Below, piece by piece: positions 271-40,782 of a DNA stretch of 64,000 bases. The notes beneath the pieces are model-generated. The model searched no databases. It was given only the letters and a program-made list of their open reading frames with translations, and had not been told where the DNA came from. Position 1 is the first letter of the stretch. Each line of letters opens with the position of its first letter. Origin of the DNA: Gammaproteobacteria bacterium (GTDB lineage Bacteria; Pseudomonadota; Gammaproteobacteria; Enterobacterales; Psychrobiaceae); NCBI GenBank assembly GCA_013214945.1, contig JABSRT010000019.1:1-64000 (forward strand). Reading direction: 5' to 3'. Made by a program: the position numbers and the translations under genes.

Positions 271-2553
271 ATGTATTCAAGGTTTTTTCTTATATCATGT
301 TTTTTGTTCTTCATTAGCATTGGCCAAATCAGTGCGGAGCCCGTGAGCATTGATAAGACAGTGCTTAACGATGCTGACTTGATGATCGCTTTTGAAAGTC
401 GTAAACCTTGGCTCGTCAATCGTAAGATTGTTAGTTCACAAACATCAACGCCTAAGTACCTTAATAACTTAATTAATTCAGAATCTCCCTATCTGCTCAG
501 TCACTCTCTTCAGCCTGTTGATTGGATAGAGTGGCAACCAGATTTTGAAACTGATTTTCAAAGCGGTGGTAGGCTGGTCTTTATCTCTATAGGTTATTCT
601 ACCTGTCATTGGTGCCATGTGATGGCGGAAGAGAGTTTTGCGAATACAGATGTTGCAGAGATTCTTAACCAGTCTTACATCAGTATTAAAGTCGACAGAG
701 AGCAGTGGCCGCTGGTGGATGAGCGTTTTAAATCGGCATTGGAATTATTGAAAGGTGAGGCCGGCTGGCCTCTTAATGTCATATTGATGCCAGATGGCAA
801 GATAGTTTGGATTGACTCTTACCTTAATAAAGATAAGTTTATTAAGCTGATCCAAGGACTTGCTAAGAGATGGCAGAAGCAACCAAAAGCTATATCTAGT
901 TTGGCGAATAGAGTAGACGCTATAGTAAATCCTGATCCACTTCCTACTTCTAATCCAGAAACAAATCCGCTTTCAAAAAGTGATTGGCGAAAGCTATTAC
1001 CTGAGCAACATCAGTCAGTTTATCAAGCCTTACTCAATGAGGAACGTCTCGGTGAACCACGTTTTTTTCGAGAGATTTGGCAACTTGGTTTACTTGATGA
1101 GTATTTAAGAACAGGTAATAAAGCTTATTTAGAGGTTGTAGAAAATCAGCTTGCTGAGATCTTGTTGAGTCCTGTGTTCGATGCCATCGATGGTGGTTTT
1201 CACCGTTATACTCTTGATAGTGAATGGCAGACACCTCACTTTGAGAAGATGCTTTATAATCAAGCATTATTAATCTCTGTATTTAGCAAGGCTTATGCAG
1301 TTTTTAACAGGCCGGAGTATCGGAACGTTGTTGACGATACCTTTGTTTTTTTAGAGCAAACATTTAAAAACAAAAATGGCAGCTATTATAGTGCGATTGA
1401 TGCCGATTATAATGGCCTTGAAGGTCGATATTATCTATTTTCTACTGAGGAATTATCAAAGATCTCCCCACTAGCACGACTTCAATTTAACTGGAATCAA
1501 TTTGAAAGCAGCGATTTTAAATTACCTGCACTTAACAAAACGGATACACCCTCGTTAATGGCAAAAAATTCATTGCTAGCAGTTAAATCTAAGTTAAAAC
1601 TTCCTTATATAGATAAAAAAATGCTCACTTCATGGAATGCATTATTAGTAAGTGCTTATTTAGACGCATATATTAGCTTTAACGATCAAAAGTATTTAAG
1701 CGCAGCCATAAAACTGGCAACAGTTTTAGAGTCAGCCCATGATGAAAATAACACACTGATCCGAGCCAGTTTTGAGGGGCGGTCATCGGGTAATGCCAAG
1801 TTGTCTGATTATGCTTATACGGCTTCAGCTATATTAAAACTGTATCGCATAACACAGCAAGCATCGCACTTATCTGCGGCACATGATTATTACGAAAAAG
1901 GTGCTGAACTTTTTGATAAAAATCATCAAGGTATATTGGCTGACATTGGTATTGATGCTGGTATTAGTATTCGATTAAACGATGGTGAGCTGATTTCACC
2001 CCATGTTGAATTGGCCAATACTGGCATCGGACTAAAAAAATTAGGTAAAAAAACAAATAACAGAGTAGCGGTACAAGTATCGGCCATTAAACAAGGCATA
2101 ATGACGAATGCGAGCAATAGCTATTCGGCAAATCGATTACTATTAGAATTGAAAAATGGCAACTTTGACAAGCTACAATCCTTTGCCAATGGTAATGGTA
2201 AGGTGAGTTTTAATATTGAAGATAATAAAACTTTAATTTTCAATATTAACCTTGCCGATGACTGGCATATTAACTCTATGTCTCCTAGACAAAAAAACCT
2301 AATACCGACTCAATTAATTGCGCGACAAGGCATACTTTCCAGTATTAACTACCCAGAACCTTTACTTAAAATGATGCGATTTGATAACTCGAAATTAAGT
2401 TTATTTGAAGGAAAGTTTACAATTCAAGCTAATTTTTCAGGGCTCTCAGCTCTAGGTGAAACCATCGAGCTAAGTCTTCAAGCTTGTAACTCAAATATCT
2501 GTTTACGACCTGAAAAGTTGAAATTTTTTATCCCGGCCTCACCTCTTATTTAA
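271..2553 (+). CDS. DUF255 thioredoxin-like protein with C-terminal DsbD-N-like domain
   Basis: This 760-residue protein has a signal peptide (about residues 1-22). Residues 66-200 match the DUF255/YyaL thioredoxin-like domain, with an SPYLL segment and a C112-H-W-C115 redox motif followed by His116. The middle resembles the alpha/alpha-barrel region of YyaL/SPATA20 proteins, which are usually cytoplasmic. The last 100 residues (LADDWHINS..., then LQACNSNICLRPEKLKF) look like the DsbD N-terminal domain, whose paired cysteines accept electrons in the periplasm. The combination suggests an exported thiol-disulfide protein, but the substrate is unknown. It converges with the next gene, the two stops overlapping by 8 bases. 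Confidence 0.8.
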   Translation: MYSRFFLISCFLFFISIGQISAEPVSIDKTVLNDADLMIAFESRKPWLVNRKIVSSQTSTPKYLNNLINSESPYLLSHSLQPVDWIEWQPDFETDFQSGGRLVFISIGYSTCHWCHVMAEESFANTDVAEILNQSYISIKVDREQWPLVDERFKSALELLKGEAGWPLNVILMPDGKIVWIDSYLNKDKFIKLIQGLAKRWQKQPKAISSLANRVDAIVNPDPLPTSNPETNPLSKSDWRKLLPEQHQSVYQALLNEERLGEPRFFREIWQLGLLDEYLRTGNKAYLEVVENQLAEILLSPVFDAIDGGFHRYTLDSEWQTPHFEKMLYNQALLISVFSKAYAVFNRPEYRNVVDDTFVFLEQTFKNKNGSYYSAIDADYNGLEGRYYLFSTEELSKISPLARLQFNWNQFESSDFKLPALNKTDTPSLMAKNSLLAVKSKLKLPYIDKKMLTSWNALLVSAYLDAYISFNDQKYLSAAIKLATVLESAHDENNTLIRASFEGRSSGNAKLSDYAYTASAILKLYRITQQASHLSAAHDYYEKGAELFDKNHQGILADIGIDAGISIRLNDGELISPHVELANTGIGLKKLGKKTNNRVAVQVSAIKQGIMTNASNSYSANRLLLELKNGNFDKLQSFANGNGKVSFNIEDNKTLIFNINLADDWHINSMSPRQKNLIPTQLIARQGILSSINYPEPLLKMMRFDNSKLSLFEGKFTIQANFSGLSALGETIELSLQACNSNICLRPEKLKFFIPASPLI

Positions 2554-3481
2554 ATTTGAAATGTGTCAACAATTTATTAACTTGCTCTGAAAATTGCTGC
2601 TTATTTTTTTTGGTACTTTGGGTTTGAATCAATAAAAAACGTTCTTTTTGATAAGATAATACTTGATATAGCCAATATGTTTGGCCTTTATGCTCTGCGT
2701 AGGCCGTAGTTGCAAGTGCTGGGATATTATCCAGTTTAATCATCTTATTTTTAATAATTTCTACTTCGTCATACCGCTTATTGTTTTTCAAAAAGTGGTC
2801 TGCAAGCTGTTGAATATCATCAATAACGGTTTTAGTTCGCCCAGTACTTATCACAACAAAGTCTGTTTTATTTGTTTCATCTGAAGATCTTAATACAATT
2901 GAATTGGCAAAACGTTTTTTGATTTTAAAATCAGCCGTAGCTGTTAAGTTGAATGGCAAGCCTGTATATAGCCGCTTGTCTGGTTCTGTTGTCACAGATA
3001 ATGTTAATAAACTTTGTTCAACTTTTTTCTTGAATTGAGTTGTCGCCCCTTCTGGGTAGCTGGCCTCCACTTTTATGCTCGATAATTTATCACCGAAAAT
3101 CAGCCAACGTTTTTCAAAAAAAGTACCTGAAATATTTTCCCGTAAGGTAATTAACGTTGATAAAATATCATTAATTTTAACTTCCTGCGTATCAACCAGT
3201 TGCTGTTTGTTTTTTAGTAAATATTCTTCGGTCAAAATTGTAGTGTAGCTAGCATAAGGTATTTCTATTTCTGAAATGTTAATGCGAGAAAAATTTTCAA
3301 CTTGAGAAAAACCATTATTTTCTGGAGTGATTCGAAAGTTTTCTGGCGGTATCAAGCTGACTTCCAAACCATCACTGATATAAAAAGATTGCGCTAAATT
3401 AGCTTGTGCTCTTGTCTCTGATTGACTCCAGCATCCGCTAATTAGGCTTATTACTGTAATAGCAGCAATACTTTTTATCAT
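2546..3481 (-). CDS. putative lipoprotein of unknown function
   Basis: The protein starts MIKSIAAITVISLISGC, a lipoprotein signal peptide whose lipobox LISGC would leave a lipidated cysteine after processing. The ATG at 3481 gives a normal-length signal; an in-frame ATG at 3514 would add 11 residues. The mature part of about 295 residues has no motif I recognise. Alternating hydrophobic and charged stretches suggest a beta-rich periplasmic fold, possibly two similar halves. It converges with the thioredoxin-like gene, overlapping it by 8 bases at the stop codons. Confidence 0.7.
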   Translation of the reverse strand: MIKSIAAITVISLISGCWSQSETRAQANLAQSFYISDGLEVSLIPPENFRITPENNGFSQVENFSRINISEIEIPYASYTTILTEEYLLKNKQQLVDTQEVKINDILSTLITLRENISGTFFEKRWLIFGDKLSSIKVEASYPEGATTQFKKKVEQSLLTLSVTTEPDKRLYTGLPFNLTATADFKIKKRFANSIVLRSSDETNKTDFVVISTGRTKTVIDDIQQLADHFLKNNKRYDEVEIIKNKMIKLDNIPALATTAYAEHKGQTYWLYQVLSYQKERFLLIQTQSTKKNKQQFSEQVNKLLTHFKFK

Positions 3482-3514
3482 TGTTAATCTAAGATATTTT
3501 GGAATACAATGCAT

Positions 3515-4394
3515 ATCAAATAAAGTCTTCTTTTAAGTAAGATCATAAAGTACAAAGGATTTTTATTGTAGCAACAGGGAAGGCTAAATAATAGCAGATA
3601 AATGTCCACTGCACTGTCAACTTATCTAAGCAGGATGAATAAAGTAACGGATTAACGAACTAAGCCATATTTTTGGTGCAACTTGGTATTCCGAAAAAGT
3701 ACGGTCACGGAAAACACGGTAGCTCTTGACGTGCAATAAATAGCGCCCGGGTCAAAACAAATAATTAGCCACCCCATGGCACGATAGAAAACGTTGAGCA
3801 TGCTCATAAGATTTAAATTGTCTCATCTGCCGATCCTGTTCCAAGCTATATTAATGGGATAGCTCACATCCATTATTGTCATACTGTTGTGTGGCGTGTT
3901 CTAGACTAGGCATAACTTCGCGCTTTGCAGCTGAATAACTTATTAGTTTAGCTGTCACTATTTTAAATGGCTTAGCTCCCTGCCCTTTGATGAGTCATAC
4001 GGACGAGAGGTTCCTTTGGTTCGTTAGTTTATCGCTCCAACCTTAGGTTGCCGTTAACCAATAGTCCTAATCGATACCTAGAATAGTTAACTGTTTGGTT
4101 CTGAAGAATTGATATATCTCACTTTTTTATGGCTAATACGAAGTCTGCTCCCGTTGCCACTGTGTATTATTGCTAAGTTTTGTGTTTAAAACTAACCAAT
4201 GAGGCATTTATTGATGATAATGACGTGGAGCATCAAAAGTTGTTGAGTTTCATTTATATTTTTATGACTGTCACTAATGTGTATTCTACCTCAGCCAATA
4301 AGCCTTGAAGGTACCTTTAATGCTTGATTAAATTTTGTACGCCGTTTATTCTTGCAGTATTCACTAAACATTTATGCCTTTGGTGAATTAAAAT
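3515..4394. other. 880-base gene-free stretch
   Basis: Both strands are broken by frequent stops and I see no convincing protein similarity, RNA gene or clear inverted repeat. The length is unusual for this gene-dense genome, so it may be decayed coding or mobile DNA. It should contain the promoter of the sulfur operon that starts at 4407, but I cannot single out a convincing one. Confidence 0.5.
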
Positions 4395-4406
4395 TTGGGG
4401 ACCGAG

Positions 4407-5300
4407 ATGGACTTGCTAGAGTTAATTGGCAATACACCACTTATTGATCTGGACTTTCTTAGTCCACGCCCCAATGATGTCAAACTCTTTGCCAAGGCGG
4501 AATGGATGAACCCCGGCGGTTCAATTAAAGACCGACCCGTTAAGGCGATGTTAACTCATGCAATTGAATCGGGACAATTAAGCCAACATCAAACCATTTT
4601 AGATTCCAGTAGCGGTAATGCCGGAATTTCTTACGCCATGATCGGCGCTGCCTTAGGTTATGACGTCACCATAGTGATCCCCGGTAATGCCAGCGCTGAG
4701 CGTAAGCAACGTATGCTGGCACACGGCGCACAATTAATTGAGACAGACCCACTTGAAGGTTACGATCAAGCTCTGCGCCATGTCAAAGCACTTTACGCTA
4801 GTGACAGTGAGCGTTATTTCTGGTGCGATCAGTACAGTAATCAGTTTAATGTGTTAGCACATTACGAAACCACAGCAGTCGAACTGCTGGCACAGGTGCC
4901 TGCGCCTATTACTCATTTTGTTTGCGGTGTCGGCACCGGTGGTTCACTGACCGGAATAGCACGGCGTCTTAAACAGCATAATAACAATATTAAAATAGTT
5001 GGAGTCAGGCCTCAGATCTGGCCGGGCATTGAAGGATTAAAACCTCTGGGATCGGCCAATGATATTATTCCAGATATTTACGATGCCTCATTGGTCGATT
5101 ATTGGCTCGATGTTAGCAGTGACGATGCAAAAATGATGTGTCATAAACTGGCTGCGCATGGTTATTTTGTTGGCCAGTCTGCTGGGGCTTATTTGGTGGT
5201 TTGTCAGCGTTTAATAAGTAAGCTATCACATGGTGTGGTCACGACTTTACTTTGCGATACGGGTGAACGTTACTTCAGTACAAGGTTGTGGCAGCCATGA
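4407..5300 (+). CDS. cysteine synthase-like PLP enzyme (CysM/CysK family)
   Basis: This 297-residue fold-type II PLP enzyme carries the motifs of O-acetylserine/O-phosphoserine sulfhydrylases: Lys41 in GGSIKDRP as Schiff-base lysine, SSSGNAG at 67-73 for substrate binding, and the phosphate loop GVGTGGS at 174-180. The ATG at 4407 is preferred over an in-frame TTG at 4395 because GGGGAC sits at ribosome-binding distance. The stop overlaps the next start (ATGA). Its partners are a JAMM peptidase and a carrier/E1/rhodanese fusion. By analogy with mycobacterial CysM-CysO-Mec, it probably takes sulfur from a protein thiocarboxylate rather than free sulfide; this is inferred. The acceptor (O-acetylserine or O-phosphoserine) cannot be told. 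Confidence 0.88.
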   Translation: MDLLELIGNTPLIDLDFLSPRPNDVKLFAKAEWMNPGGSIKDRPVKAMLTHAIESGQLSQHQTILDSSSGNAGISYAMIGAALGYDVTIVIPGNASAERKQRMLAHGAQLIETDPLEGYDQALRHVKALYASDSERYFWCDQYSNQFNVLAHYETTAVELLAQVPAPITHFVCGVGTGGSLTGIARRLKQHNNNIKIVGVRPQIWPGIEGLKPLGSANDIIPDIYDASLVDYWLDVSSDDAKMMCHKLAAHGYFVGQSAGAYLVVCQRLISKLSHGVVTTLLCDTGERYFSTRLWQP

Positions 5301-5734
5301 CAATTTATATCAATGATGCTATCAGAGAGAGCATGCTTAAACAGGCTAAAGCGAGTTATCCACTTGAATGCTGTGGCTTTATTGTCGGTAGCAGAGTGAT
5401 GTCAGAGGATAGTTTTAACGTCAAAGGCGGCTATTTTGTCGCATGTGATAACAAAATTAAGCAGCATAGCCGGCGGCGGTTTCTGATTAACCCCGAGATA
5501 TACCAGCAAGTTGAAGATGATGCACAAGAACTCGGACTGATGATCATTAGCATCGTGCATTCTCATCCGGATCATTCCGATTCTCCCTCAGAGTTTGATC
5601 GTCTGCATGCCTGGCCCGGAGTTAGTTACATTATTATTTCGGTGTGTAATGGCCGTATACACAGTTATAACTCCTGGCGACTGGCCGATGATCGCAGCAA
5701 ATTCATGCCTGAAGACATTATTCGAGGAGGCTAA
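5297..5734 (+). CDS. JAMM/Mov34 metallopeptidase (Mec-like)
   Basis: This 145-residue protein has a complete JAMM zinc motif: Glu24 in the LECCGF segment, His88 and His90 in HSHPDHSDSPSEFD, Ser98 and Asp101. Bacterial members cleave after the C-terminal Gly-Gly of ubiquitin-like sulfur carriers; Mycobacterium Mec releases cysteine from CysO. The ATG at 5297 overlaps the upstream stop, implying coupled translation; an in-frame GTG at 5288 is less likely. The downstream gene encodes a carrier domain whose Gly-Gly is internal, so this peptidase could free the carrier, release cysteine from it, or both. Confidence 0.88.
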   Translation: MTIYINDAIRESMLKQAKASYPLECCGFIVGSRVMSEDSFNVKGGYFVACDNKIKQHSRRRFLINPEIYQQVEDDAQELGLMIISIVHSHPDHSDSPSEFDRLHAWPGVSYIIISVCNGRIHSYNSWRLADDRSKFMPEDIIRGG

Positions 5735-5738
5735 TACG

Positions 5739-7175
5739 ATGAACATTATAATGAAAATTCCCTCACCACTGCGACATTTTACCCAAGATGCAGCCTTGGT
5801 TGAGCTAGAAGCAATTCATGTTGGTGAGGCATTAGAACAATTATGTCTGATTTATCCTGATATTAAACCACATTTGCTCGATGAACAGGGTGAACTACGA
5901 AACTTTGTCAATATCTTCCATAACAAGGTTGATATTAGGCAGTTGCAAGGATTAGATACCTTGTTACATGAAGAAAGTGAGTTACGTATTGTTCCTGCGA
6001 TTGCCGGTGGTAGTGAGCTAGCGACGTCGGATTTTTCCACCACCCTGAGTCCCGAGGAACTTAGCCGTTATAGTCGTCATATTTTATTGCCAGAAATTGG
6101 TGTTTCAGGGCAGGAACGACTCAAACAAGCAAGCGTATTAATTGTCGGAGCTGGGGGGTTAGGCTGTCCGGTCAGTCTTTATCTGGCGGCGGCTGGTGTC
6201 GGCAGATTAGGAATCATTGATGGTGATGTCGTCGACGAGTCTAACTTGCAACGGCAAATACTCTATACCGTTGCCGATATCGGCGTTGCAAAAGCTGATT
6301 GTGCTCAGGCTCGTCTAGAACAACTCAATCCTCATATTAAAATTGACAGTTATCGTGAGAACTTGACCAAGAGTAATGCACTGGAAATTATCGGCGATTA
6401 TGATTTAGTCATTGACGGCACAGATAATTTCCCAACCCGCTATCTGGTTAACGATGCCTGTGTGTTACTTAACAAGCCCAATGTTTACGGCAGTATTTTT
6501 AGGTTCGATGGCCAGGCAACTGTGTTTAATTATCAGGGGGGCCCATGTTATCGCTGCCTCTATCCAGAACCGCCACCGCCGGGGCTGGTGCCATCATGTG
6601 CTGAGGGCGGAGTTTTAGGGGTTTTACCGGCGATCATTGCCTCAATTCAGGCAACTGAAGCAATTAAAATGATCACCGGCATTGGCCAATCACTGAGCCA
6701 GCGGTTACTGCTATATGATGCGTTAAAACTTGATTTTACGACCTTAGCTATTCAAAAAAGTCCTAAGTGCCCTGTCTGTGGTGAACAGCCAACGATTCGC
6801 TCCTTGGTGGATTATCAGCAACTTTGCGGACTGGCTCCGAGCAGCGAGCCAGTATTGTTTCAACAAATTAGTCCCCAACAGTTACAACAGCAACTGGCCG
6901 GTGATGACAGTGTGATTTTGATTGATGTAAGGGAGTCTTACGAACGGGCAATTTGCTGCATTGCTGGCAGCCGACATATTGTGATGGCGGATATTGAGCA
7001 GCAGCAGTCACAATTTCGTCTCGATCAGCCACTGGTCTTTCATTGTAAAATGGGCGGACGGTCGGCCAAGGTTTGTCAGCAGTTCGTTGCTAAAGGCTAC
7101 ACCAATATTAGTAACCTATCTGGTGGGATCCTGGCATGGGCTGACCAGATTGATCCCAGTTTGGCTAAATATTAA
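5739..7175 (+). CDS. fused ubiquitin-like carrier / MoeB-ThiF E1 / rhodanese protein
   Basis: The protein has 478 residues. Residues 1-91 look like a MoaD/ThiS/CysO-type ubiquitin fold ending in Gly90-Gly91. Residues 103-350 are a MoeB/ThiF adenylating enzyme: ATP loop GAGGLG 137-142, RYSRHILLPEIG at 110-121, zinc pairs C270-x2-C273 and C344-x2-C347, and the catalytic-type Cys287 in SCAEGGVLG. Residues 375-478 are a rhodanese domain with active-site Cys436 in HCKMGGRS. The start at 5739 follows GAGGAGG. One chain thus holds carrier, activator and sulfur donor, the same set as CysO plus MoeZ in Mycobacterium. Because Gly-Gly is internal, thiocarboxylation would need prior cleavage, perhaps by the adjacent JAMM protein. 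Confidence 0.9.
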   Translation: MNIIMKIPSPLRHFTQDAALVELEAIHVGEALEQLCLIYPDIKPHLLDEQGELRNFVNIFHNKVDIRQLQGLDTLLHEESELRIVPAIAGGSELATSDFSTTLSPEELSRYSRHILLPEIGVSGQERLKQASVLIVGAGGLGCPVSLYLAAAGVGRLGIIDGDVVDESNLQRQILYTVADIGVAKADCAQARLEQLNPHIKIDSYRENLTKSNALEIIGDYDLVIDGTDNFPTRYLVNDACVLLNKPNVYGSIFRFDGQATVFNYQGGPCYRCLYPEPPPPGLVPSCAEGGVLGVLPAIIASIQATEAIKMITGIGQSLSQRLLLYDALKLDFTTLAIQKSPKCPVCGEQPTIRSLVDYQQLCGLAPSSEPVLFQQISPQQLQQQLAGDDSVILIDVRESYERAICCIAGSRHIVMADIEQQQSQFRLDQPLVFHCKMGGRSAKVCQQFVAKGYTNISNLSGGILAWADQIDPSLAKY

Positions 7176-7711
7176 AGCCGGGTGTATATGCCCCCAACTA
7201 CCAACATCGCGTAACATGGTGTTGATCTTGAATTCAGTTTTATCGGTATTATTGTCAGGTTAGAATCATTAATCGTTGTCGTAATAGATGTAGCGAGGTG
7301 ATATGACTCGCGTTCAACAGGTTGTGACGGTGCTACCTTGAGAGAATACTTTGTTCACCTACATTGGCGATCATTTCGAACAAATAGCAGTAACCATTAA
7401 AAAAACCTAGAATTTAACACCAATACTTTCGTCAACATAACCAAGCAAATTAATGATTTTCGAAAACGACATTGAAGAATAAAAATTGCACTCTCATCAT
7501 TAAATTGACCATACCAAGAGTATTCGCTATAGCTACCGACCTGACAATAATCTAGCAATGCAGACATTTAACCTGTTTGCCCCTAAACTAACCCAGCTAG
7601 AATTTGTGATAAAATCAGCATGCTGCAAGGTTTCATCGATTTCACTAACTTAATGCGGCATAAATACGCTAAAATAGGCGCTATTATTTTAGCTTTGAGT
7701 CCTTTATATTA
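7176..7711. other. intergenic stretch of 536 bases
   Basis: I find no supported gene here. Short open frames on the plus strand continue from the rhodanese coding region in another frame and have no recognisable similarity. The only clear structure is the hairpin just before the helicase start, listed separately. Confidence 0.5.
7668..7693 (+). promoter_or_regulatory. leader hairpin before the DEAD-box helicase
   Basis: GCTAAAATA at 7668-7676 pairs perfectly with TATTTTAGC at 7685-7693, ending 18 bases before the helicase ATG. The helicase has only a weak ribosome-binding sequence (GAG at about 7696). An RNA hairpin there could modulate its translation, as known for cold-responsive helicase leaders; this role is inferred. 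Confidence 0.35.
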
Positions 7712-9013
7712 ATGACCACCATAACAACGCCAGCCAACTTTTTAGAACTTGGTATTATCCCGCCCTTGTTAGCTCGATTAACTGAACTTGAGTATCAACA
7801 GCCAACACCTATTCAAGCACAAGCTATCCCAAGCATATTAGCAGGACGTGACTTAATTGGAGGGGCTAATACTGGTTCAGGTAAAACAGCGACCTTTGCA
7901 CTGCCAATATTGCAGCACCTTTTTGAGAAAAAGCAGGCAGAAGGTTCATTGAGCAGCAACACCAGTAAAGGTAACTATGTTACTGGACTTATTTTAGTAC
8001 CGACACGTGAGTTGGCCAAGCAAGTAGCAGACAGCATTAAATCTTATGCGGTGCATTTTAACGGCGCGATTAAAACGATTGCTGTATTTGGTGGGGTATC
8101 AGCCAACACTCAAATGCTTGCATTACGCGGTGGCACTGACATTTTGGTTGCAACGCCAGGTCGCTTACTCGATTTAATTTCAAGTAATGCGATAAAACTC
8201 GATAAGGTTAAAACCTTAGTGCTTGATGAAGCTGATAGGATGTTAAGCCTAGGTTTTACTGATGAAATCGAGGCACTGTTAGCCTTGTTGCCAAATAAAA
8301 AACAAACGTTGTTATTTTCAGCGACCTTTCCTGAGCAAGTACAGACCTTAACCCAAGAGTTACTTAGCGATCCGGTTGAAATACAGGTGCAAAGTGCAGA
8401 TGCCAGCACTTTGGTGCAGCGTGTGTTTACCGTTGATAAAGGCCAAAAAACCGCCTTGTTAGCGCATTTGATTAAACAACATCAATGGCGACAAGCACTT
8501 GTTTTCGTCAATGCAAAGAACAGCTGTAATCACTTAGCCGACAAACTCGAAAAACGTGGGATTGCCGCAGAAGTATTTCATGGCGATAAAGGCCAAGGCG
8601 CTCGTAGTCGGGTGCTTGAAGCGTTTAAAGCTGGCGAAATTGACGTATTAATTGCCACTGATATTGCTGCCCGTGGCCTCGACATCGAAAAACTACCAGT
8701 AGTGATTAACTTTGATTTACCGAGAAGTCCAGCAGACTACATGCACCGCATTGGCCGAAGTGGCCGCGCAGGTGAAGTAGGCTTGGCATTATCGCTGATT
8801 GATTATGAAGACTATCATCATTTCAAAGTCATCGAGAAGAAAAACAAGGTTCGGCTTGAGCGTGAGCAAGTACCAGGTTTTGAAGTGACAGACGTTGTAA
8901 ATGAAGTTATTGCTGCCGCTGATAAACCAATGGCACGACCTGAAGGCACCGGTAAGAAAAAACGCAAAAATAAAGCGCCAGTCAATGCCGATATCTGGTT
9001 GAGAAATTCTTAA
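7712..9013 (+). CDS. DEAD-box RNA helicase, RhlE-like
   Basis: This 433-residue ATP-dependent RNA helicase has a complete motif set: Q motif around QQPTPIQ, motif I ANTGSGKT at 52-59, PTREL near 97-101, motif II DEAD at 172-175, SAT, and the second-domain motifs ARGLDIE and HRIGRSGRAG. The basic tail (GKKKRKNK) is short, as in RhlE-type enzymes acting on ribosome assembly or RNA decay. It is transcribed alone, with a long leader and a strong shared terminator downstream. Confidence 0.9.
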   Translation: MTTITTPANFLELGIIPPLLARLTELEYQQPTPIQAQAIPSILAGRDLIGGANTGSGKTATFALPILQHLFEKKQAEGSLSSNTSKGNYVTGLILVPTRELAKQVADSIKSYAVHFNGAIKTIAVFGGVSANTQMLALRGGTDILVATPGRLLDLISSNAIKLDKVKTLVLDEADRMLSLGFTDEIEALLALLPNKKQTLLFSATFPEQVQTLTQELLSDPVEIQVQSADASTLVQRVFTVDKGQKTALLAHLIKQHQWRQALVFVNAKNSCNHLADKLEKRGIAAEVFHGDKGQGARSRVLEAFKAGEIDVLIATDIAARGLDIEKLPVVINFDLPRSPADYMHRIGRSGRAGEVGLALSLIDYEDYHHFKVIEKKNKVRLEREQVPGFEVTDVVNEVIAAADKPMARPEGTGKKKRKNKAPVNADIWLRNS

Positions 9014-9038
9014 GCTAAAAAGATAAATTGACAACCAT

Positions 9039-9073
9039 CTAAAACGAGACAACGAACTGTTGTCTCGTTTTAG
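9039..9073. terminator. bidirectional terminator between helicase and lolE
   Basis: A perfect 15-base-pair stem (CTAAAACGAGACAAC with GTTGTCTCGTTTTAG) closes a GAACT loop. A and T runs on the two sides allow it to end transcripts from both converging genes. Confidence 0.85.
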
Positions 9074-9074
9074 A

Positions 9075-10316
9075 TTACTGTCCCAAGACCAACGCTGGTT
9101 TAATGCCCGCGGCTTTACGCGCTGGATAAAGCGTGGCGACAAAACTAATCACCAAAGTAACGCCAATCAATAACGCCAAGTCTTGCCACTGGAATTGGCT
9201 CGGAAGAAAGTCGATGAAATAGACATCGCCTGACAAAAATTGTAAGCCAAATAAGCTTTCAATTGTCGCCATTATCGCCGCTAAATTTGTAGCGACTAGG
9301 TATCCAGAAACGCCACCAAGCAAACAACCTAACAGCGCATTTAACATGCCTTGCACGATAAATATCCGCATCACCCGCGCTTGAGTCAGCCCCATGGTTA
9401 ACAAAATAGCAATTTCACTTTCTTTGTCTTGCACCGCCATCACTAAGGTCGACACGATATTAAAACTAGCAACCCCAATCACTAAAAACAACACAATATA
9501 GGTGATAAGTTTGACCATTTTAATGTCGGTATAAAGATGGCCCTGAGTACGAGTCCAATCGCTAACATAAACATGTTTATTGGCAGCCAGCGCAACTTGA
9601 CGCGTGGTTAATTGTGCGCTAAAAACATCGGCGAATTTAAGCCTAATACCATCAACCCCTTGGGCGCTGCCAGTAATATTGCGCGCATCATCAAGGTTTA
9701 TATAAGCCTGAGTATAATCAATCTTGCCTCCAAATTTAAACGCGCCGGCCAAAGTAAAACTAACCGACTTTGGCGTGGTTAGCCGACCATTTACTGCCGG
9801 TTGTGGTAACATCAGATGCACTTTGTCACCCAGTGCCAAGCCCAAATCTTTAATGATGCCTTGACCAAGAATAATCAAACCAGTTTGCACTCTTAATTGC
9901 GACCAAGCAGCGGGCTCAACAAATTTGCTAATGCTTGAAACTTGCGACTCTAATCCGGGATCAATGCCAATCAGTTCGACCCCTTTAAGATCGTTGCCTT
10001 GAATAATCAGCGAACTTATTTTAATAAAAGGAGCAGCACCAACCACATTATTTTGTTGCTTGGCTTGCGCCATTGTCGCGCGCCAATCACGCAACGGCGG
10101 GTTAACCGCGGTAATTTCACCATGGGGTACTACCGACAGCAATTTATTCGTTAACTCACGTTCAAAGCCGTTCATCGCCGATAAAATAATGGTTAATACT
10201 AAAATACCCACCGCAATGCCTAGCATCGCCGACATCGAGATAAAAGAGATAAAACGATTACTGCTTTTGGCCAATAAAAAGCGCAAGCCAATCAACAGTG
10301 ATATAGATTTGTCCAT
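9075..10316 (-). CDS. lolE: lipoprotein-releasing ABC transporter permease LolE
   Basis: This 413-residue membrane subunit of LolCDE extracts outer-membrane lipoproteins from the inner membrane and hands them to LolA. It shows the family pattern: one N-terminal membrane segment (SFISMSAMLGIAVGILVLTIILSAMNGFE region), a large periplasmic domain, and three C-terminal segments ending in the ATLYPARKAAGIKPA cytoplasmic motif. The ATG at 10316 shares one base with the lolD stop, so translation is probably coupled. A longer frame to 10379 exists but runs inside lolD. It is last in lolC-lolD-lolE. Confidence 0.93.
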   Translation of the reverse strand: MDKSISLLIGLRFLLAKSSNRFISFISMSAMLGIAVGILVLTIILSAMNGFERELTNKLLSVVPHGEITAVNPPLRDWRATMAQAKQQNNVVGAAPFIKISSLIIQGNDLKGVELIGIDPGLESQVSSISKFVEPAAWSQLRVQTGLIILGQGIIKDLGLALGDKVHLMLPQPAVNGRLTTPKSVSFTLAGAFKFGGKIDYTQAYINLDDARNITGSAQGVDGIRLKFADVFSAQLTTRQVALAANKHVYVSDWTRTQGHLYTDIKMVKLITYIVLFLVIGVASFNIVSTLVMAVQDKESEIAILLTMGLTQARVMRIFIVQGMLNALLGCLLGGVSGYLVATNLAAIMATIESLFGLQFLSGDVYFIDFLPSQFQWQDLALLIGVTLVISFVATLYPARKAAGIKPALVLGQ

Positions 10317-35342: not shown

Positions 35343-38177
35343 TTAGTTTGATTGTAGTACCAAACCCGCTGGTAAAGCGTCGCCATAAACCCGCTTGGTT
35401 TCAGCCTCATTAAGTATTTTGACCTGACTAACCATTTCGATCCAACTTGTTGGTGCCTTAGCTTTGCTGAGCTTGTCGATAACCTGCGCGATTAGACTGT
35501 CGTCAAGATCACGCGTACGATCGCCGCACTTGCGCACCATCATGACGGCGGCAAAAGCAATGAATTGGTCTTTTTTCCAATCGTGCTTAAGTAGTTGCGG
35601 CAACCAAGCGGCTATCTGAGTCGGAGCAATCACGTTATGAGCGCTGCCATAAAATAGTGAACGGCTGCAAATACGCCCGATTGCCCACCAATTAGCTTGC
35701 GCATTGGCCGATTTTTTCGTGCGTTCAAGCAACCATTGCACTAACTCTATTTTGGTCGCAAGCGATAGATGCTCTAACGATGCCGCCAGTCGTACCATGT
35801 CTTCGTAAGATTTAGTCGCGAGTTCAGCGACAAGCTTACGGTTTTTTAAATTGCTTGGATTAATGTAAGGAGCAATATCATGATAAATCTGTTGCTGGCG
35901 TTGCTCGTTTAAGCCACCGGCTGCGCGGCGCCAAAAAGTCCACCACTCAGCCCAGCTTGGCGTGGCTTTGTTAAACTGTAACCCGGTGGCATAAAGTGGC
36001 CATATTTGTTCAACTCGCCAATCATCGAGCGCAAAACCAAATCCCGGGCGCAACATAAAACCAGCCTGCTTAAACCAATTTCGTTCATGTAACTCTGAAC
36101 GGCGACGACGTTTTTGACCCTGTAACAAATAATCAACTAACTCTCTTAATACTGGCGTTTGCCAATCTTCCCGTTTTCCCAGTGCTTTTTCCAATGCCGG
36201 TTTTAAATTTTTGACCGCTTTAGGATCTGTGGTTTTGTTGCTATTACCGTATACCGTCTCGATTGCTGCAATTGCCTCGGGGAATTTGGCGGGCAAAGCT
36301 GATTGTGACCCATCACTTGTTGACTGACTATCTTTTGAATGAGAATCCTTTAAATGAGTAAGTGCTTTACGGATTTGAAATTCAACCTGCCAGCGCTGAC
36401 TAGGATCGTTAACCGAAACACAGGCAAGTTCGAGCGTGCCTACTTGGGTCAATTGACAAACTAACGTGACATCAACCTTAGTTTGCTGCTCATTTTTTAT
36501 CGCGGCGACCAACGGTGGCAAATTAATGTAACGTTCGGTATTAAGTCTCATCAATTGACCCGGATTAAAGACTTGATCATCTGTGGTCGACGCTAAATTA
36601 AACCGTACTGGTTTGCCTAAGGTCAATGAAAAAACATGCTCTTTTAATGCCACTTCAATGTTTTCTTCAGTGCCTTTAGGCAACAAGCAAATGCCCTCGC
36701 CCTCATCGCTATCAAGCACTAAAAAGAACGAACGAGCAGAGCCACCGCCAATTTTTAATTGGCTGCCAGCGCGTGCTTTAGCATAAGCTACTGCGCCAAA
36801 AGCTACCGCAAGATCAGGATTGGTGTTTTCAAGTATTGTTACCGGTGCCTGTTTCCAGTTGCTGAAAACGTCGGCCGCACGGTCACTAAGTAGTTTGCTA
36901 TTAAACAACCCACCATTGAGTAAAATTGCACTAGGGATCGCGGGTCTGTCATCATCGGTTTCCATTCGTAATGCCTTACGACAAGCCAATTGATGTTGAT
37001 TTAAAAATTGCGCTAAATGTTTACTAATCGCTGGATCGGCTGCATAAGGCAAACCAAATTCCACAATTGCACTCTGGCGTACATCAGGTAATTGTGAAAA
37101 GTCAGTCAGTGGTAAAAAACCGTCTAAGGCCAACTGTTGAACTTCAGTACCCGTTAATTCACACGTCTTTGAGCCGCCAATCAGTCGAGAACCGCCGCCG
37201 AGCACGGTAACATTTGCAAATTCTGGGGGTTGATGGCCCAGTAATAATTCCTTAGCCTGACGTGTTTGTTGAATTAATTGCGATAACGCCGCACTCGACA
37301 TTTTTTTATGACCAACACTGAGCCGCTGCTCAGCGGTATAAGCCAGTGCTAAATCTAAATTGTCGCCACCGAGCATTAAATGGTCACCAACCCCGATCCG
37401 GTTCAGTGCCAGATTATGGTCAGTTGCATTTATTTCAACACTGATCAAACTTAAATCAGTGGTACCGCCGCCAACATCACAGACCATTAACAGTGGAATA
37501 TCTTTCAGCAAAGCTTGGGCATTATCACGATTTTTTTGGTACCAGTGGTATACCACAGCTTGCGGTTCTTCGAGCAACACAATATTGTCAAGCCCAGCCA
37601 GTGCAGCCGCTTCGACAGTAAAAGCCCGCGCCGCTTCATCGAACGATGCAGGCACAGTAATCACAACTTGCTGTTGATTAAGCGGTGCGTCTTGATGGTG
37701 ATGATCCCAACACTGGCGCACGTGATTTAAATAACTGGCACTGGCGACCAAAGGTGATACCTTTGCAACCTCGTCACTGCTACCCCAAGGTAAAATGGCG
37801 GCAGTTCGGTCGACCTCAAGGTGCGACAACCAACTTTTGGCACTGACAACTTGGCGCCCTGCCACTTTAGCACCAAGCTCGCGCGCTAGCTCACCAATAA
37901 CAACTAAGGGTAATTCGCCACTGACTCCTTGATGCGACCACGGCAGTACGAGTTGATCACTCGTCAGTTCACCAGCCATTGCATGATAGCGAAAACTCGG
38001 TAACAAGGGCTTTCTCGCCACGACACCCGGCGCAACTAATTGATCGATTTCAAATATTTGGCTTATTTGAGCTTGGCTATTTACCACGCTGTCGTCCAAA
38101 GGACTAAAGGCGACAACCGTGTGAGTTGTGCCAAGATCGATACCAACCTGAAAACGCGGCTGTGCTTGGTTGTTCAT
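35343..38177 (-). CDS. large Hsp70-family protein with C-terminal DUF3731-like extension
   Basis: This 944-residue protein has an Hsp70/actin ATPase domain: phosphate-1 GIDLGTTHTVVAF near 12-24, phosphate-2 CDVGGGTTDLSLI, and adenosine-type ILLNGGLF. It lacks the normal DnaK substrate domain. Beyond about residue 560, a charged linker leads to a 300-residue helical region (RNWFKQAGFMLRPGFGFALD and so on) like the DNA-K-related/DUF3731 family. The start at 38177 is set by GGAG just upstream. It is third in an operon after DUF2760 and the other Hsp70. The paired Hsp70s may work as a dimer; the client is unknown. Confidence 0.82.
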   Translation of the reverse strand: MNNQAQPRFQVGIDLGTTHTVVAFSPLDDSVVNSQAQISQIFEIDQLVAPGVVARKPLLPSFRYHAMAGELTSDQLVLPWSHQGVSGELPLVVIGELARELGAKVAGRQVVSAKSWLSHLEVDRTAAILPWGSSDEVAKVSPLVASASYLNHVRQCWDHHHQDAPLNQQQVVITVPASFDEAARAFTVEAAALAGLDNIVLLEEPQAVVYHWYQKNRDNAQALLKDIPLLMVCDVGGGTTDLSLISVEINATDHNLALNRIGVGDHLMLGGDNLDLALAYTAEQRLSVGHKKMSSAALSQLIQQTRQAKELLLGHQPPEFANVTVLGGGSRLIGGSKTCELTGTEVQQLALDGFLPLTDFSQLPDVRQSAIVEFGLPYAADPAISKHLAQFLNQHQLACRKALRMETDDDRPAIPSAILLNGGLFNSKLLSDRAADVFSNWKQAPVTILENTNPDLAVAFGAVAYAKARAGSQLKIGGGSARSFFLVLDSDEGEGICLLPKGTEENIEVALKEHVFSLTLGKPVRFNLASTTDDQVFNPGQLMRLNTERYINLPPLVAAIKNEQQTKVDVTLVCQLTQVGTLELACVSVNDPSQRWQVEFQIRKALTHLKDSHSKDSQSTSDGSQSALPAKFPEAIAAIETVYGNSNKTTDPKAVKNLKPALEKALGKREDWQTPVLRELVDYLLQGQKRRRRSELHERNWFKQAGFMLRPGFGFALDDWRVEQIWPLYATGLQFNKATPSWAEWWTFWRRAAGGLNEQRQQQIYHDIAPYINPSNLKNRKLVAELATKSYEDMVRLAASLEHLSLATKIELVQWLLERTKKSANAQANWWAIGRICSRSLFYGSAHNVIAPTQIAAWLPQLLKHDWKKDQFIAFAAVMMVRKCGDRTRDLDDSLIAQVIDKLSKAKAPTSWIEMVSQVKILNEAETKRVYGDALPAGLVLQSN

Positions 38178-38226
38178 TGGGACTCCGGAGTGATGAGAGG
38201 TGAAACTAGCTGAAAAGTGGGAATTA

Positions 38227-38254
38227 GGCAGTAATACCATTGGGTATTACTGCC
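38227..38254. other. hairpin between the two hsp70-like genes
   Basis: GGCAGTAATACC pairs with GGTATTACTGCC around a four-base loop, within the 110-base gap. Without a T tract it is more likely an mRNA-processing or stability element that separates the two cistrons. Confidence 0.5.
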
Positions 38255-38287: not shown

Positions 38288-40111
38288 TTATTTAGCCCGC
38301 ACGTCAAACTCAACCTGCCAGCGTTCGTCGCCGTCACGCGCAATAACCTCAAGGGCTAAAGTACCAACTTCAGTGACGCGTGCCGCTAGTGTCACCGGCA
38401 CAACATCGCCAGCATTGCGACCTTCAATCGGCAAGGTCGCTGATATTTCAGGTAACTCTTCCAGTTCATCAGGCGCCCAAAAATCAAGGTGAGTACCAAC
38501 TTCGTCATCGCGGCGCACAGTCGAGCCGAAAAACTTAAATTGTACCGGTTGGCCAACAACGACCCCAAACTGGCGGTCTGTTACCTGGGTACTAGATCCT
38601 TCTTCCATTCCAAATGGCGCCACACATATAGCTTCTAGGGGGGGTGCCATACCAGGAATGGCCGGCATCGCACTTTCAATGCCAACATAATATGCGCTGG
38701 CAATGCCACCACGAATTCTGACGCCTTTGCCATGACGAACATAACCATAATAAGACGCGCCACTAGCAACGGCTAAATCAAGATCGACCCCAGTCAACAA
38801 TTTAGCTTCGTTGGCATCAGCGTCGGTTAACCAGCCATTGATAATAGCCATAAGCCGTGAAGACAGCAGATCCGACTTTAAAACGCCACCATTAAATAAA
38901 ATCGCCGTTGGTTTGATGAAATCGTCTTCACTTTCACCAAATAGCTCGGTGACCGCGTCGTGTTGACGATTTAGAAAGGCGGCAAGATGACGAGAAATTG
39001 CGGCATCTTGAGCATAAGGCAGACCAATTTGAGTCAGGGCGGTACGCGCTTGCGCAACCGGATGTTCGGTAACGGGCGTCTTAGGGAAAAAACCTTCGAC
39101 TAACACTTGTTGGACTTCTTGCTGAGTTAGTTCAGTTTTCAACGTTGAACCAAGCAATTTTGAACCACGGCTCGGCACCACAATAGGTACTGACTGCAAG
39201 TCACTGTCATTTAATAATGCTTCTTTAGCATCGCGACAGGCGTGTACCATGCCTTGAATTTGCCAAGGTTGTAGATTTTTACCTTGTTGGGCTAATTTAG
39301 CGCGTAAAGTATATGCCAGTGCCAAATCCATATTGTCACCGCCAAGTAAAATATGATCACCAACGGCGACTCGATTTAAGGTTAAATTACCGTCTTGTTC
39401 GGTGACTGCGATTAACGATAAATCAGTAGTGCCACCACCAACATCAATCACTAAGATAACGTCACCGACACTCACTTGCTCACGCCAGTTATCTTCATTA
39501 TTTTTAAGCCAGCTATACACCGCTGCTTGTGGTTCTTCCAGTAATGTTAAATGTTCAAAGCCGACTTCGGTCGCCGCGGCAGCGGTTAGCTCTCTTGCAC
39601 CAGGATCAAACGACGCAGGCACAGTAATAGTAACATCTTGCTCCGTTAGCGGCATTTGTGGAAAGGCCTGTAACCATGCGGCGGCCAAATGTTCTAGGTA
39701 GTATTTACTCGCAGTAACTGGTGAGACCTTAGTTACTTCGTCTGGGCTGTTCAGTGGTAAAAAGGCATTATGGCGATCAACTCCGCCATGCCCTAACCAG
39801 CTTTTAGCGCTAGCGACTAAACGGATCGGCGTTTTACTGCCTAAATTTCTAGCTAAGGTGCCGACCACAATTTGGTTATCAGCAGACCAAGGCAATGCCA
39901 TTTGACCTGGCGCTAATTCAGCTTCGTGGGCTTGATATAAAAATGAAGGCAGTTGATTTTTTTCTTCAACCGAGCCTGCAGCAGTAAGTTGCGGGATCGT
40001 CAGTATTTGTGGTTCAATATTATCGCTGTCACTGTGCAGGTCAACATATGACAGCACGCAGTGAGTCGTGCCTAAATCGATGCCAACACTATATCTTGGT
40101 GATTGGTTCAT
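38288..40111 (-). CDS. Hsp70-family protein
   Basis: This 607-residue Hsp70-like ATPase starts MNQSPRYSVGIDLGTTHCVL, has VILVIDVGGGTTDLSLIAV, the linker-side ILFNGGVLKSDLL and a short beta-rich C-terminal part ending ERWQVEFDVRAK. It lacks DnaK's C-terminal lid. It is clearly homologous along its length to the larger partner next door, so the pair arose by duplication. The ATG overlaps the DUF2760 stop (ATGA), so translation is coupled. Confidence 0.85.
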   Translation of the reverse strand: MNQSPRYSVGIDLGTTHCVLSYVDLHSDSDNIEPQILTIPQLTAAGSVEEKNQLPSFLYQAHEAELAPGQMALPWSADNQIVVGTLARNLGSKTPIRLVASAKSWLGHGGVDRHNAFLPLNSPDEVTKVSPVTASKYYLEHLAAAWLQAFPQMPLTEQDVTITVPASFDPGARELTAAAATEVGFEHLTLLEEPQAAVYSWLKNNEDNWREQVSVGDVILVIDVGGGTTDLSLIAVTEQDGNLTLNRVAVGDHILLGGDNMDLALAYTLRAKLAQQGKNLQPWQIQGMVHACRDAKEALLNDSDLQSVPIVVPSRGSKLLGSTLKTELTQQEVQQVLVEGFFPKTPVTEHPVAQARTALTQIGLPYAQDAAISRHLAAFLNRQHDAVTELFGESEDDFIKPTAILFNGGVLKSDLLSSRLMAIINGWLTDADANEAKLLTGVDLDLAVASGASYYGYVRHGKGVRIRGGIASAYYVGIESAMPAIPGMAPPLEAICVAPFGMEEGSSTQVTDRQFGVVVGQPVQFKFFGSTVRRDDEVGTHLDFWAPDELEELPEISATLPIEGRNAGDVVPVTLAARVTEVGTLALEVIARDGDERWQVEFDVRAK

Positions 40112-40782
40112 AGTTCCACCTCTGCAGCAGCAACGATATTAAGATCATGACCCGGCGCTAACTTAGGTAATTTTGTTGCAGCAACTTTCCAACCTTTATG
40201 GACCAAAATACCAGAGAATGGTGCTTGACCAACAACATTGCCGGTTAGGCGAATTTGCGTTGCGTCGAACCCTGCTGGCAAAGTAATTGGGCTCTCTTCT
40301 TCTTGGTTAACCACTGGCTCCAAGGTGAAATATTGACTAAGCACTTTCTGGCCACCTTCGTGAATAACGCGTGCTGCCGCGCCAACTTCTGCATCGGCAA
40401 AGCCAGTCAGATCTTCACTGATAAAGTCGATAAAGCGGGCTTCTTGCTGCAGCAAAGATAATAATTGCAAGGCAGCAGCTGGGCTGGTTGAGTCAAGTTT
40501 CGCACTTACTTCAACTTCTTTGATCACTTCAACTTCTTTGATTACTTCAATTTCTTTAATCACTTCAACTTCTTTGATTACTTCAATTTCTTTGATCACT
40601 TCAATTTCTTTAATCACTTCAATTTCTTTGATTACTTCGATTTCTTTTTCGACAATTTCATTTTTGCCTTTTTTACTGACATACAATAATGCGAAAATAA
40701 TGGCTGTCGCCGCAAGTCCAGCATGCCCTTGATCTAACAAGTTTGGTGCCGTTTCAAAAATGGCTGAAAAGTCTAAATTCAT
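40108..40782 (-). CDS. DUF2760 protein with membrane anchor and repeat-built helix
   Basis: This 224-residue protein has an N-terminal hydrophobic segment (LAATAIIFALLYVSKKGK), then about eight copies of a six-residue unit (IKEIEV or close), then a globular DUF2760 domain (ALQLLSLLQQEARFIDFI, then GAAARVIHEGG). The repeats should form a long charged helix or coiled coil holding the domain away from the membrane. ATG 40782 is preferred over an upstream start at 40815. It is first in an operon with two Hsp70-like genes, suggesting it recruits or anchors them at the inner membrane. Confidence 0.78.
   Translation of the reverse strand: MNLDFSAIFETAPNLLDQGHAGLAATAIIFALLYVSKKGKNEIVEKEIEVIKEIEVIKEIEVIKEIEVIKEVEVIKEIEVIKEVEVIKEVEVSAKLDSTSPAAALQLLSLLQQEARFIDFISEDLTGFADAEVGAAARVIHEGGQKVLSQYFTLEPVVNQEEESPITLPAGFDATQIRLTGNVVGQAPFSGILVHKGWKVAATKLPKLAPGHDLNIVAAAEVEL
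40508..40651 (-). repeat. 18-base tandem repeat within the DUF2760 gene
   Basis: Seven good and one degenerate unit of ACTTCAAYTTCTTTRATY, each 18 bases, encode IKE(I/V)EV. Units differ mainly at synonymous or Ile/Val positions. In-frame repeats of this kind tend to change copy number by slippage without disturbing the frame. Confidence 0.92.

What the first reader, a model, noticed from the sequence alone, without database searches (positions are those of the whole stretch)
4407..7175. Three-gene protein-thiocarboxylate sulfur system with the carrier, E1 and rhodanese fused
A cysteine-synthase-like enzyme, a JAMM peptidase with intact zinc motif, and one chain with ubiquitin-like carrier, MoeB-like E1 and rhodanese are translated as a coupled set. 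In Mycobacterium the CysO-CysM-Mec system uses separate carrier, E1-rhodanese (MoeZ), synthase and peptidase. Here all parts lie in three genes and the carrier Gly90-Gly91 is internal, so the JAMM enzyme may have to cut the fusion before the carrier can be charged.
Basis: partly seen in the sequence, partly recalled or inferred. Interest (0 to 1): 0.8.

Follow-up and report, generated by a model that had tools for sequence, protein, structure and literature searches.

The report
Sulfur carrier fused to its activator
A bacterium makes its small ubiquitin-like sulfur carrier as the front end of the very enzyme that must load it, so the carrier probably has to be cut free by a neighbouring protease before it can help make cysteine; the same design recurs in several distant bacterial groups.

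Summary
Window 4407-7175 encodes a CysM-like synthase, a JAMM/JAB peptidase with intact zinc motif, and one 478-residue chain: a CysO-type carrier (residues 1-91, ending Gly90-Gly91), a MoeB/ThiF-type E1 and a rhodanese. The carrier's closest solved relatives, by sequence and by fold, are two CysO proteins.

The fusion is not a one-off: 35 distinct fused loci (window included; record titles name six bacterial groups), plus four in an even class sample. Gly-Gly is kept in all 39; Ser or Ala follows in 32. An E1 tree needs at least six fused/separate switches. All 35 genomes have a JAB gene, within 7 kb of the fusion in 34; in the other the contig begins just upstream. In the even sample a JAB lay beside 5 of 5 fused carriers but 3 of 48 uncapped ones.

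Best reading: a CysO-CysM-Mec-like pathway whose carrier is made as an E1-capped precursor, freed after Gly91, most likely by the JAMM enzyme, which then also releases the product. Cleavage and sulfur loading are inferred, not shown. Protease uncapping of short caps and cleavage of the MoaX fusion are published. New variant of a known kind.

The parts
4407..5300 (+). CysM-like PLP enzyme (297 aa); GSIKDR with Lys41; loop SSSGNAG where its CysM relatives have TSGNTG
   Evidence: Pfam PALP 223.7 bits; NCBIfam cysM/cysKM below their cut-offs; closest solved: O-acetylserine sulfhydrylase B 2jc3 and cysteine synthase B 2v03; family alignment A5
5297..5734 (+). JAMM/JAB metallopeptidase (145 aa), start overlapping the cysM stop
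   Evidence: Prok-JAB 76.0 bits; best solved relative 2kcq
5558..5599 (+). JAMM zinc motif HSHPDHSDSPSEFD (residues 88-101); the Glu24 codon is 5366-5368
5724..5730 (+). Shine-Dalgarno-like GAGGAGG before the fused gene
5739..7175 (+). fused carrier-E1-rhodanese gene (478 aa)
5739..6011 (+). CysO-type ubiquitin-fold sulfur carrier, residues 1-91
   Evidence: ThiS 36.5 bits; PDB profile search, CysO 4n6e_B 7.7e-29 and 3dwg_C 3.3e-28; fold match TM 0.88-0.91
6006..6011 (+). Gly90-Gly91, inferred cleavage and charging point (before Ser92)
   Evidence: kept in all 39 fused loci (L133); pLDDT under 50 at 87-96
6012..6041 (+). linker (residues 92-101), variable in relatives; no in-frame ATG/GTG/TTG here
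6042..6785 (+). MoeB/ThiF-type E1 domain (residues 102-349) with GAGGLG, CxxC/CxxC and Cys287
   Evidence: ThiF 290.7 bits; MoeB 1jw9 alignment; Foldseek 1jw9_B, TM 0.95 by target; motif positions
6870..7145 (+). rhodanese domain (residues 378-469) with the loop HCKMGGRS, Cys436
   Evidence: Rhodanese 59.4 bits

Best explanation
The operon is a protein-thiocarboxylate sulfur pathway of the CysO-CysM-Mec kind in which the carrier is made as a precursor capped by its own activating enzyme. Proposed steps: (1) the fusion is translated (sequence). (2) The chain is cut after Gly91, most likely by the JAMM enzyme encoded just upstream, freeing the carrier's Gly-Gly end and the E1-rhodanese, which then starts at Ser92 (inferred). 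(3) The E1 adenylates Gly91 and the rhodanese (Cys436 persulfide) turns it into a thiocarboxylate (inferred from family). (4) The CysM-like enzyme joins this sulfur to an activated serine, giving carrier-Gly-Gly-cysteine (inferred from family). (5) The same JAMM enzyme cuts the Gly-Gly-Cys bond, releasing cysteine or a close relative and the carrier for another round (inferred from Mec). Processing and product release are then one reaction: cutting a peptide bond after Gly-Gly, mostly before a small residue.
For: Carrier is CysO-like. The own genome has other carriers in a moa-like and a thi-like cluster (labels by eye), each system apparently with its own E1, and a full-scoring cysteine synthase, so this set looks like an extra, dedicated system; the CysO profile matched nothing else in it. 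Gly-Gly kept in all 39 fused loci while linkers vary. The only stretch under pLDDT 50 in the fused model is 87-96. JAB in all 35 genomes of the main set. Even class sample: JAB beside 5 of 5 fused carriers, 3 of 48 uncapped. Unfused sister L125 has cysM > JAB > carrier ending GG-KK > E1-rhodanese. Fused loci with no cysM in the stretch examined (YcaO/TfuA type; encapsulin type) also have JAB. In the window no start codon near the junction would give the whole E1 alone. Published: capped carriers need a protease such as QbsD (PMC6006322 passage); MoaX is cut at Gly82-Ser83 (PMC4326299 abstract and passages).
Against: No cleavage, thiocarboxylate or product was observed. In cysM-type operons a JAB gene is expected for product release alone; the encapsulin-type locus L066 has a Cys/Met-metabolism PLP enzyme beside JAB, which could call for a release step in the same way. 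JAB genes are common in the class at genome level (147 of 369 genomes at E 1e-5), so only nearness is informative. Tree-aware pairs were too few for a test (2 on starred branches, median p 0.5). Two capped carriers have no JAB beside them: G302 (tail KYC, even sample) and L153 (tail SRR), though both genomes have one elsewhere. Residues after Gly-Gly include Ile, Val, Asn, Gly and Arg as well as Ser and Ala, so no strict site is evident.
Confidence: 0.7

Rival explanations
1. The carrier is freed after Gly91, but by another protease of the cell; the JAMM enzyme only releases the cysteine product, as Mec does in mycobacteria.
For: The MoaX protease was unidentified in 2015 (PMC4326299). In cysM operons JAMM has a sufficient job already.
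Against: JAB also accompanies fused loci with no cysM in the stretch examined, and proteases encoded beside the carrier are the published uncapping enzymes for short caps.
Confidence: 0.15
2. The fusion stays whole. The carrier domain is a built-in docking or regulatory module and never carries sulfur.
For: Ub-like domains fused to ThiF, thought to differ in role from stand-alone ThiS, are described by Iyer et al. 2006 (PMC1779556).
Against: Gly-Gly is kept in all 39 fused loci with linkers of different length and sequence; no other CysO-like carrier was found in this genome (E 1e-6), and the ThiS model found only a MoaD-like, a ThiS-like and a sub-cut-off match besides.
Confidence: 0.1
3. The processed carrier works as proposed, but the product is not cysteine: the CysM-like enzyme makes another beta-substituted alanine, or the set serves a stress or redox role beside the main cysteine synthase.
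For: The enzyme misses the NCBIfam cysM and cysKM cut-offs, has SSSGNAG instead of TSGNTG, and the genome has a full-scoring cysteine synthase on C16.
Against: Closest solved relatives are CysM proteins and the operon type with a cysteine synthase is known (PMC1779556).
Confidence: 0.2

Closest known systems
CysO-CysM-Mec-MoeZ cysteine pathway (Mycobacterium)
   Same: CysO-type carrier, E1 with rhodanese, CysM-like enzyme and JAMM-type enzyme; the carrier matches CysO best (pathway described in passages of PMC3227635)
   Different: carrier fused in front of its E1, so its Gly-Gly is internal; three genes in one operon; substrate of the CysM-like enzyme unknown
Operon type 4c of Iyer et al. 2006 (ThiS/MoaD + E1-rhodanese + JAB + cysteine synthase)
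   Same: same parts list
   Different: in the passages and section read the ThiS/MoaD protein is listed as its own component; no carrier-E1-rhodanese chain with cysM and JAB is mentioned there
Capped carriers with protease uncapping (QbsD system; PtmS2 with PtmS1)
   Same: residues follow the Gly-Gly and, for PtmS2, a JAMM gene lies beside the carrier gene (PMC6006322 passage)
   Different: the caps named there are one or two residues; here the cap is the 387-residue E1-rhodanese
MoaX (fused MoaD-MoaE) of M. tuberculosis
   Same: Ub-fold carrier with internal Gly-Gly followed by Ser; cutting shown to be needed there (PMC4326299)
   Different: fused to the sulfur user MoaE, not to the E1; protease unidentified there
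Ubl-E1 fusions (N-terminal Ub-like ThiF; [quoted passage not shown]
   Same: Ub-like domain in front of another protein (passages of PMC1779556, PMC2948915, PMC11354881)
   Different: no rhodanese, cysM or JAB partner set described for them in the passages read

Membership tests
CysO-CysM-Mec type protein-thiocarboxylate pathway | CysO-like ubiquitin-fold carrier ending in Gly-Gly | tested here: met
   profile E 3.3e-28 to 3dwg_C; fold TM 0.88; Gly90-Gly91
CysO-CysM-Mec type protein-thiocarboxylate pathway | carrier translated with a free C-terminal Gly-Gly | tested here: not met
   Gly-Gly is internal, 387 residues follow
CysO-CysM-Mec type protein-thiocarboxylate pathway | MoeZ-like E1 with C-terminal rhodanese | tested here: met
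   ThiF and Rhodanese domains; the MoeZ equivalog model matched at 460.8 bits, under its cut-off of 647, so the architecture is met but not that model's name
CysO-CysM-Mec type protein-thiocarboxylate pathway | CysM-like synthase accepting carrier thiocarboxylate and O-phosphoserine | not testable with these tools
CysO-CysM-Mec type protein-thiocarboxylate pathway | JAMM peptidase with intact zinc motif in the same operon | tested here: met
Protease-uncapped sulfur carriers (QbsD kind) | residues after Gly-Gly and a JAMM gene beside the carrier | tested here: met
Protease-uncapped sulfur carriers (QbsD kind) | the protease removes the extension | not testable with these tools
   needs biochemistry
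MoaD/MoeB (Moco) system | is the genome's MoaD with its E1 | tested here: not met
   a separate 83-aa MoaD-like protein ending Gly-Gly lies among moa-like genes on C5 (labels by eye) and a separate 251-aa E1 on C9; I saw no moa-like gene among the ORFs listed for the window (80 aa or more to 12000, 150 aa or more beyond)

The most novel reading that the evidence does not exclude
Bacteria repeatedly use a ubiquitin-fusion-precursor strategy for sulfur carriers: the carrier is born locked to its own E1, in either domain order, and the lock is opened by the same JAMM enzyme that later releases the product. This would set a 1:1 supply of carrier and E1, keep unprocessed E1 and carrier inactive until the JAMM enzyme is present, and make JAMM enzymes the general maturation proteases of fused carriers.
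Probability: 0.5. Interest if true: 0.72.

Novelty: new variant of a known kind. Interest (0 to 1): 0.57.

Why it matters
Eukaryotes make ubiquitin as fusions cut at Gly-Gly. Here a simpler bacterial relative appears to do the same with the carrier and its own E1, recurring in distant lineages, which gives a clean system for asking what JAMM proteases first did. It also offers a candidate class for unidentified proteases that cut fused carriers.

Tried and rejected
Sequencing error or frameshift: rejected, the fusion is conserved across genera and other groups.

Separate translation of the E1 from an internal start: in the window there is no ATG/GTG/TTG between Gly91 and the E1 motif; the first is a TTG at codon 26 after Gly91, inside the E1. 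Several relatives do have such codons, so this is shown for the window only.

JAB presence at genome level as a test: weak, because 147 of 369 class genomes have one; I used nearness instead. The Fisher p of 1.4e-7 (48 of 48 fused or capped against 2 of 9 uncapped, counted by genome) ignores kinship and I do not rely on it; the tree-aware test had too few pairs. That count left out L138 and the even sample, which was drawn later.

Comparison with mycobacterial CysM Arg220 (number recalled): not reached, that alignment was not printed.

Prior description: ten paper runs were answered (13, 17, 37, 38, 63, 64, 74, 75, 91, 92); in their listings and in the passages that I opened I saw no description of a carrier-E1-rhodanese chain with cysM and JAB. 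I read passages of PMC1779556 (and its outline and section 12), PMC4326299, PMC6006322, PMC3227635, PMC8346489, PMC2948915 and PMC11354881, no whole text. Burroughs et al. 2009 on the E1-like superfamily (recalled) is not held, so prior mention there is possible.
Full report
WHAT IS THERE. Three genes run head to tail: 4407-5300, 5297-5734 and 5739-7175. The first stop overlaps the second start (ATGA); the third starts four bases after the second stop with GAGGAGG in front. The nearest large ORFs outside are one on the minus strand at 2546-3514 and one at 7712-9013 on the plus strand, so the set stands alone. Gene 1 is a PALP enzyme whose closest solved relatives are CysM proteins. It misses the NCBIfam cysM and cysKM cut-offs and has SSSGNAG where those relatives have TSGNTG. 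Gene 2 is a Prok-JAB peptidase with Glu24 and HSHPDHSDSPSEFD. Gene 3 is one chain: ThiS 6-91, ThiF 111-346, rhodanese 378-469.

THE CARRIER. A profile of 24 carriers (fused, capped and plain; alignment A6) hits the chains 4n6e_B (7.7e-29) and 3dwg_C (3.3e-28) first; the next hit is 1.1e-15 and ThiS is 0.34. The predicted fold of residues 1-91 (mean pLDDT 93.3) matches the same two best (TM 0.88-0.91); their titles name CysO of Amycolatopsis and the sulfur carrier of the mycobacterial cysteine pathway. So it is a ubiquitin-fold carrier and CysO-like. In the model of the whole chain (mean pLDDT 89.3) residues 87-96, the Gly-Gly and the start of the linker, are the only stretch of three or more under 50.

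THE GENOME. Six ThiF-family matches: the window, a 251-aa E1 on C9, one on C26 beside a ThiS match, and three others (C10 twice, C8). A MoaD-like protein lies among moa-like genes on C5 and the C26 pair among thi-like genes (labels by eye). A full-scoring cysteine synthase is on C16. The window set therefore looks like an extra, dedicated system. One further ThiS match was below its cut-off, in a 948-aa frame; the CysO profile matched only the window. Of the nine genomes of the window's genus listed in the order search, two have the fused gene, so it is patchy. The other is G461, whose contig has the same length and match place as L115, a record titled Psychrobiaceae.

HOW WIDESPREAD. In 394 genomes of the order, 21 matched the carrier/E1-start query; 15 of these, the window included, have carrier and E1 in one frame, and the other six have a separate carrier or match only around the E1 start. 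In the named collection a pattern scan, whose patterns do not include the Gly-Gly, gave 40 loci: 25 fused, 13 separate with residues after the Gly-Gly, one separate with a long tail (L138) and one ending at Gly-Gly (L148). Five of the 25 are loci of the order search again (L115, L117, L119, L122, L139), so 35 distinct fused loci are in hand. Their titles name Gammaproteobacteria (among them Shewanella benthica, Moritella, Photobacterium, Glaciecola, Bowmanella), Neomarinimicrobiota, Chloroflexi, Thermoanaerobaculia, Elusimicrobia and Zixiibacteriota. Without the window, 21 of 34 have cysM > JAB > fused gene. An earlier class search with the whole protein (369 genomes) listed only one long match into the carrier besides the window, G231 from residue 7, which has a stop between carrier and E1; G029's match begins at residue 72 with a stop inside. 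Four genomes listed there for their E1 alone turned out to be fused in the other domain order.

AN EVEN SAMPLE. Because the two sets above were fished with fused sequences, I searched the 369 class genomes with the carrier profile: 54 genomes, 56 matches. I read all 56: 5 fused (window included; four are carrier-rhodanese-E1), 1 with a three-residue tail, 48 ending exactly at Gly-Gly, 2 unclear. A JAB gene lay in the fetched stretch (1.5 or 2.5 kb each side, less at contig ends) for 5 of 5 fused, 0 of 1 capped, 3 of 48 uncapped and 0 of 2 unclear. Many of the 48 are other carriers ending in LSGG, so they are a loose comparison, and the profile itself was built from the carriers found before.

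THE GLY-GLY. All 39 fused loci (35 plus four of the even sample) keep Gly-Gly at the end of the carrier. The next residue is Ser in 19, Ala in 13, Val in 2, Asn in 2, and Ile, Gly and Arg once each. In the 32 loci with the carrier-E1 order where the E1 motif could be read (33 less L133), 10 to 37 residues separate the two. A motif kept strictly while its neighbours change points to use of the Gly-Gly itself.

JAB WITH EVERY FUSION. All 14 fused genomes of the order search have a JAB over the cut-off, within 7 kb of the fused gene; so has the window. Of the 20 other fused loci, 19 have one in the locus; L132's contig begins some 350 bases upstream, and its genome has one. Of 13 capped separate carriers 12 have one in the locus, and the genome of the other (L153) has one. 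Of nine separate carriers ending at Gly-Gly that I met on the way (G348, G628, G115, G424, G619, G231, G289, L148 and a second carrier of G461), the genomes of G628 and G461 have a JAB over the cut-off. This is no proof: in cysM operons a JAMM is needed anyway to release cysteine. More telling are fused loci with no cysM match in the stretch examined: carrier-rhodanese-E1 beside YcaO and TfuA genes (L062), and carrier-E1-rhodanese beside a type 2A encapsulin shell protein (L066) and a class-V aminotransferase that looks like an encapsulin-cargo cysteine desulfurase (L064). L066 also has a Cys/Met-metabolism PLP enzyme, so an adduct-release role for JAB is not excluded there.

HISTORY. A tree of 69 E1 domains (34 fused, 35 separate; L133 left out because its E1 is cut) needs 8 changes between fused and separate, at least 6 on well supported branches (the bootstrap had not settled and several rows are long). 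L125, from a Moraxellaceae genome, branches with the window group and is unfused: cysM, JAB, a carrier ending Gly-Gly-Lys-Lys, and an E1-rhodanese frame overlapping its stop. Fusion thus looks like an exchange of one cap for a larger one. The tree cannot tell gain from loss.

MECHANISM. E1 enzymes activate such proteins by adenylating the carboxy-terminal glycine (PMC2948915 passage), so an internal Gly-Gly should not be chargeable. Either the chain is cut or the motif is unused; its strict conservation argues for cutting. A protease such as QbsD uncaps carriers with extra residues, and a JAMM gene clusters with the capped PtmS2 (PMC6006322 passage); Mec cuts CysO-cysteine (PMC3227635 passages); the MoaD-MoaE fusion MoaX must be cut between Gly82 and Ser83 by a protease then unidentified (PMC4326299 abstract and passages). 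The adjacent JAMM is the best candidate for both cuts here. Shown here: gene anatomy, domain identity, conservation, co-occurrence. Inferred: cleavage, thiocarboxylate, product.

NOVELTY. The parts list is known (type 4c of PMC1779556), and Ub-like domains in front of ThiF or E1 are known (PMC1779556, PMC2948915). I saw no description of the carrier-E1-rhodanese chain with cysM and JAB, nor of its recurrence, in the searches named in Tried and rejected; one key survey is not held. I rate it a new variant of a known kind.

Noticed in passing
L062 (G739; L139 titled Glaciecola sp. MH2013) 1254-5764: Carrier-rhodanese-E1 fusion with JAB beside a YcaO gene and a TfuA gene: a possible dedicated sulfur source for thioamide formation. 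Bowmanella dokdonensis (L152) has the same fusion and JAB; its other neighbours were not read.
   Followed up: partly
L066 (G719) 3246-7454 and L064 (G737) 4983-9245: Carrier-E1-rhodanese fusions next to a type 2A encapsulin shell gene (Pfam SrpI-like in L066; L064's by likeness to it). In L064 a class-V aminotransferase that looks like an encapsulin-cargo cysteine desulfurase follows; in L066 a Cys/Met-metabolism PLP enzyme and JAB precede. The passages read of the 2021 encapsulin survey name rhodaneses; ThiF, MoeB and sulfur carrier do not occur in its main text (PMC8346489).
   Followed up: partly
L138 7998-8420: Archaeal (Euryarchaeota) carrier with a tail of about 50 residues; the motif IAGG occurs three times from the carrier end on, the last at the very C-terminus, then one in-frame stop and the E1-rhodanese.
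   Followed up: no
L109 7950-8414 (own genome, C17): A second JAB, 53% identical to the window's, stands near an FAD-oxidase-like gene and a glyoxalase-like gene (labels by eye), with no ThiS match reported on that contig.
   Followed up: partly
L161/L216 (G011), L162/L217 (G164), L167/L215 (G061): cysM and JAB matches beside fusions in the other domain order, carrier-rhodanese-E1.
   Followed up: partly
window 40108-40815: 235-aa protein with a run of EVIKEI-like repeats beside two tandem Hsp70-like genes (38288-40111 and 35343-38240; labels by eye).
   Followed up: no
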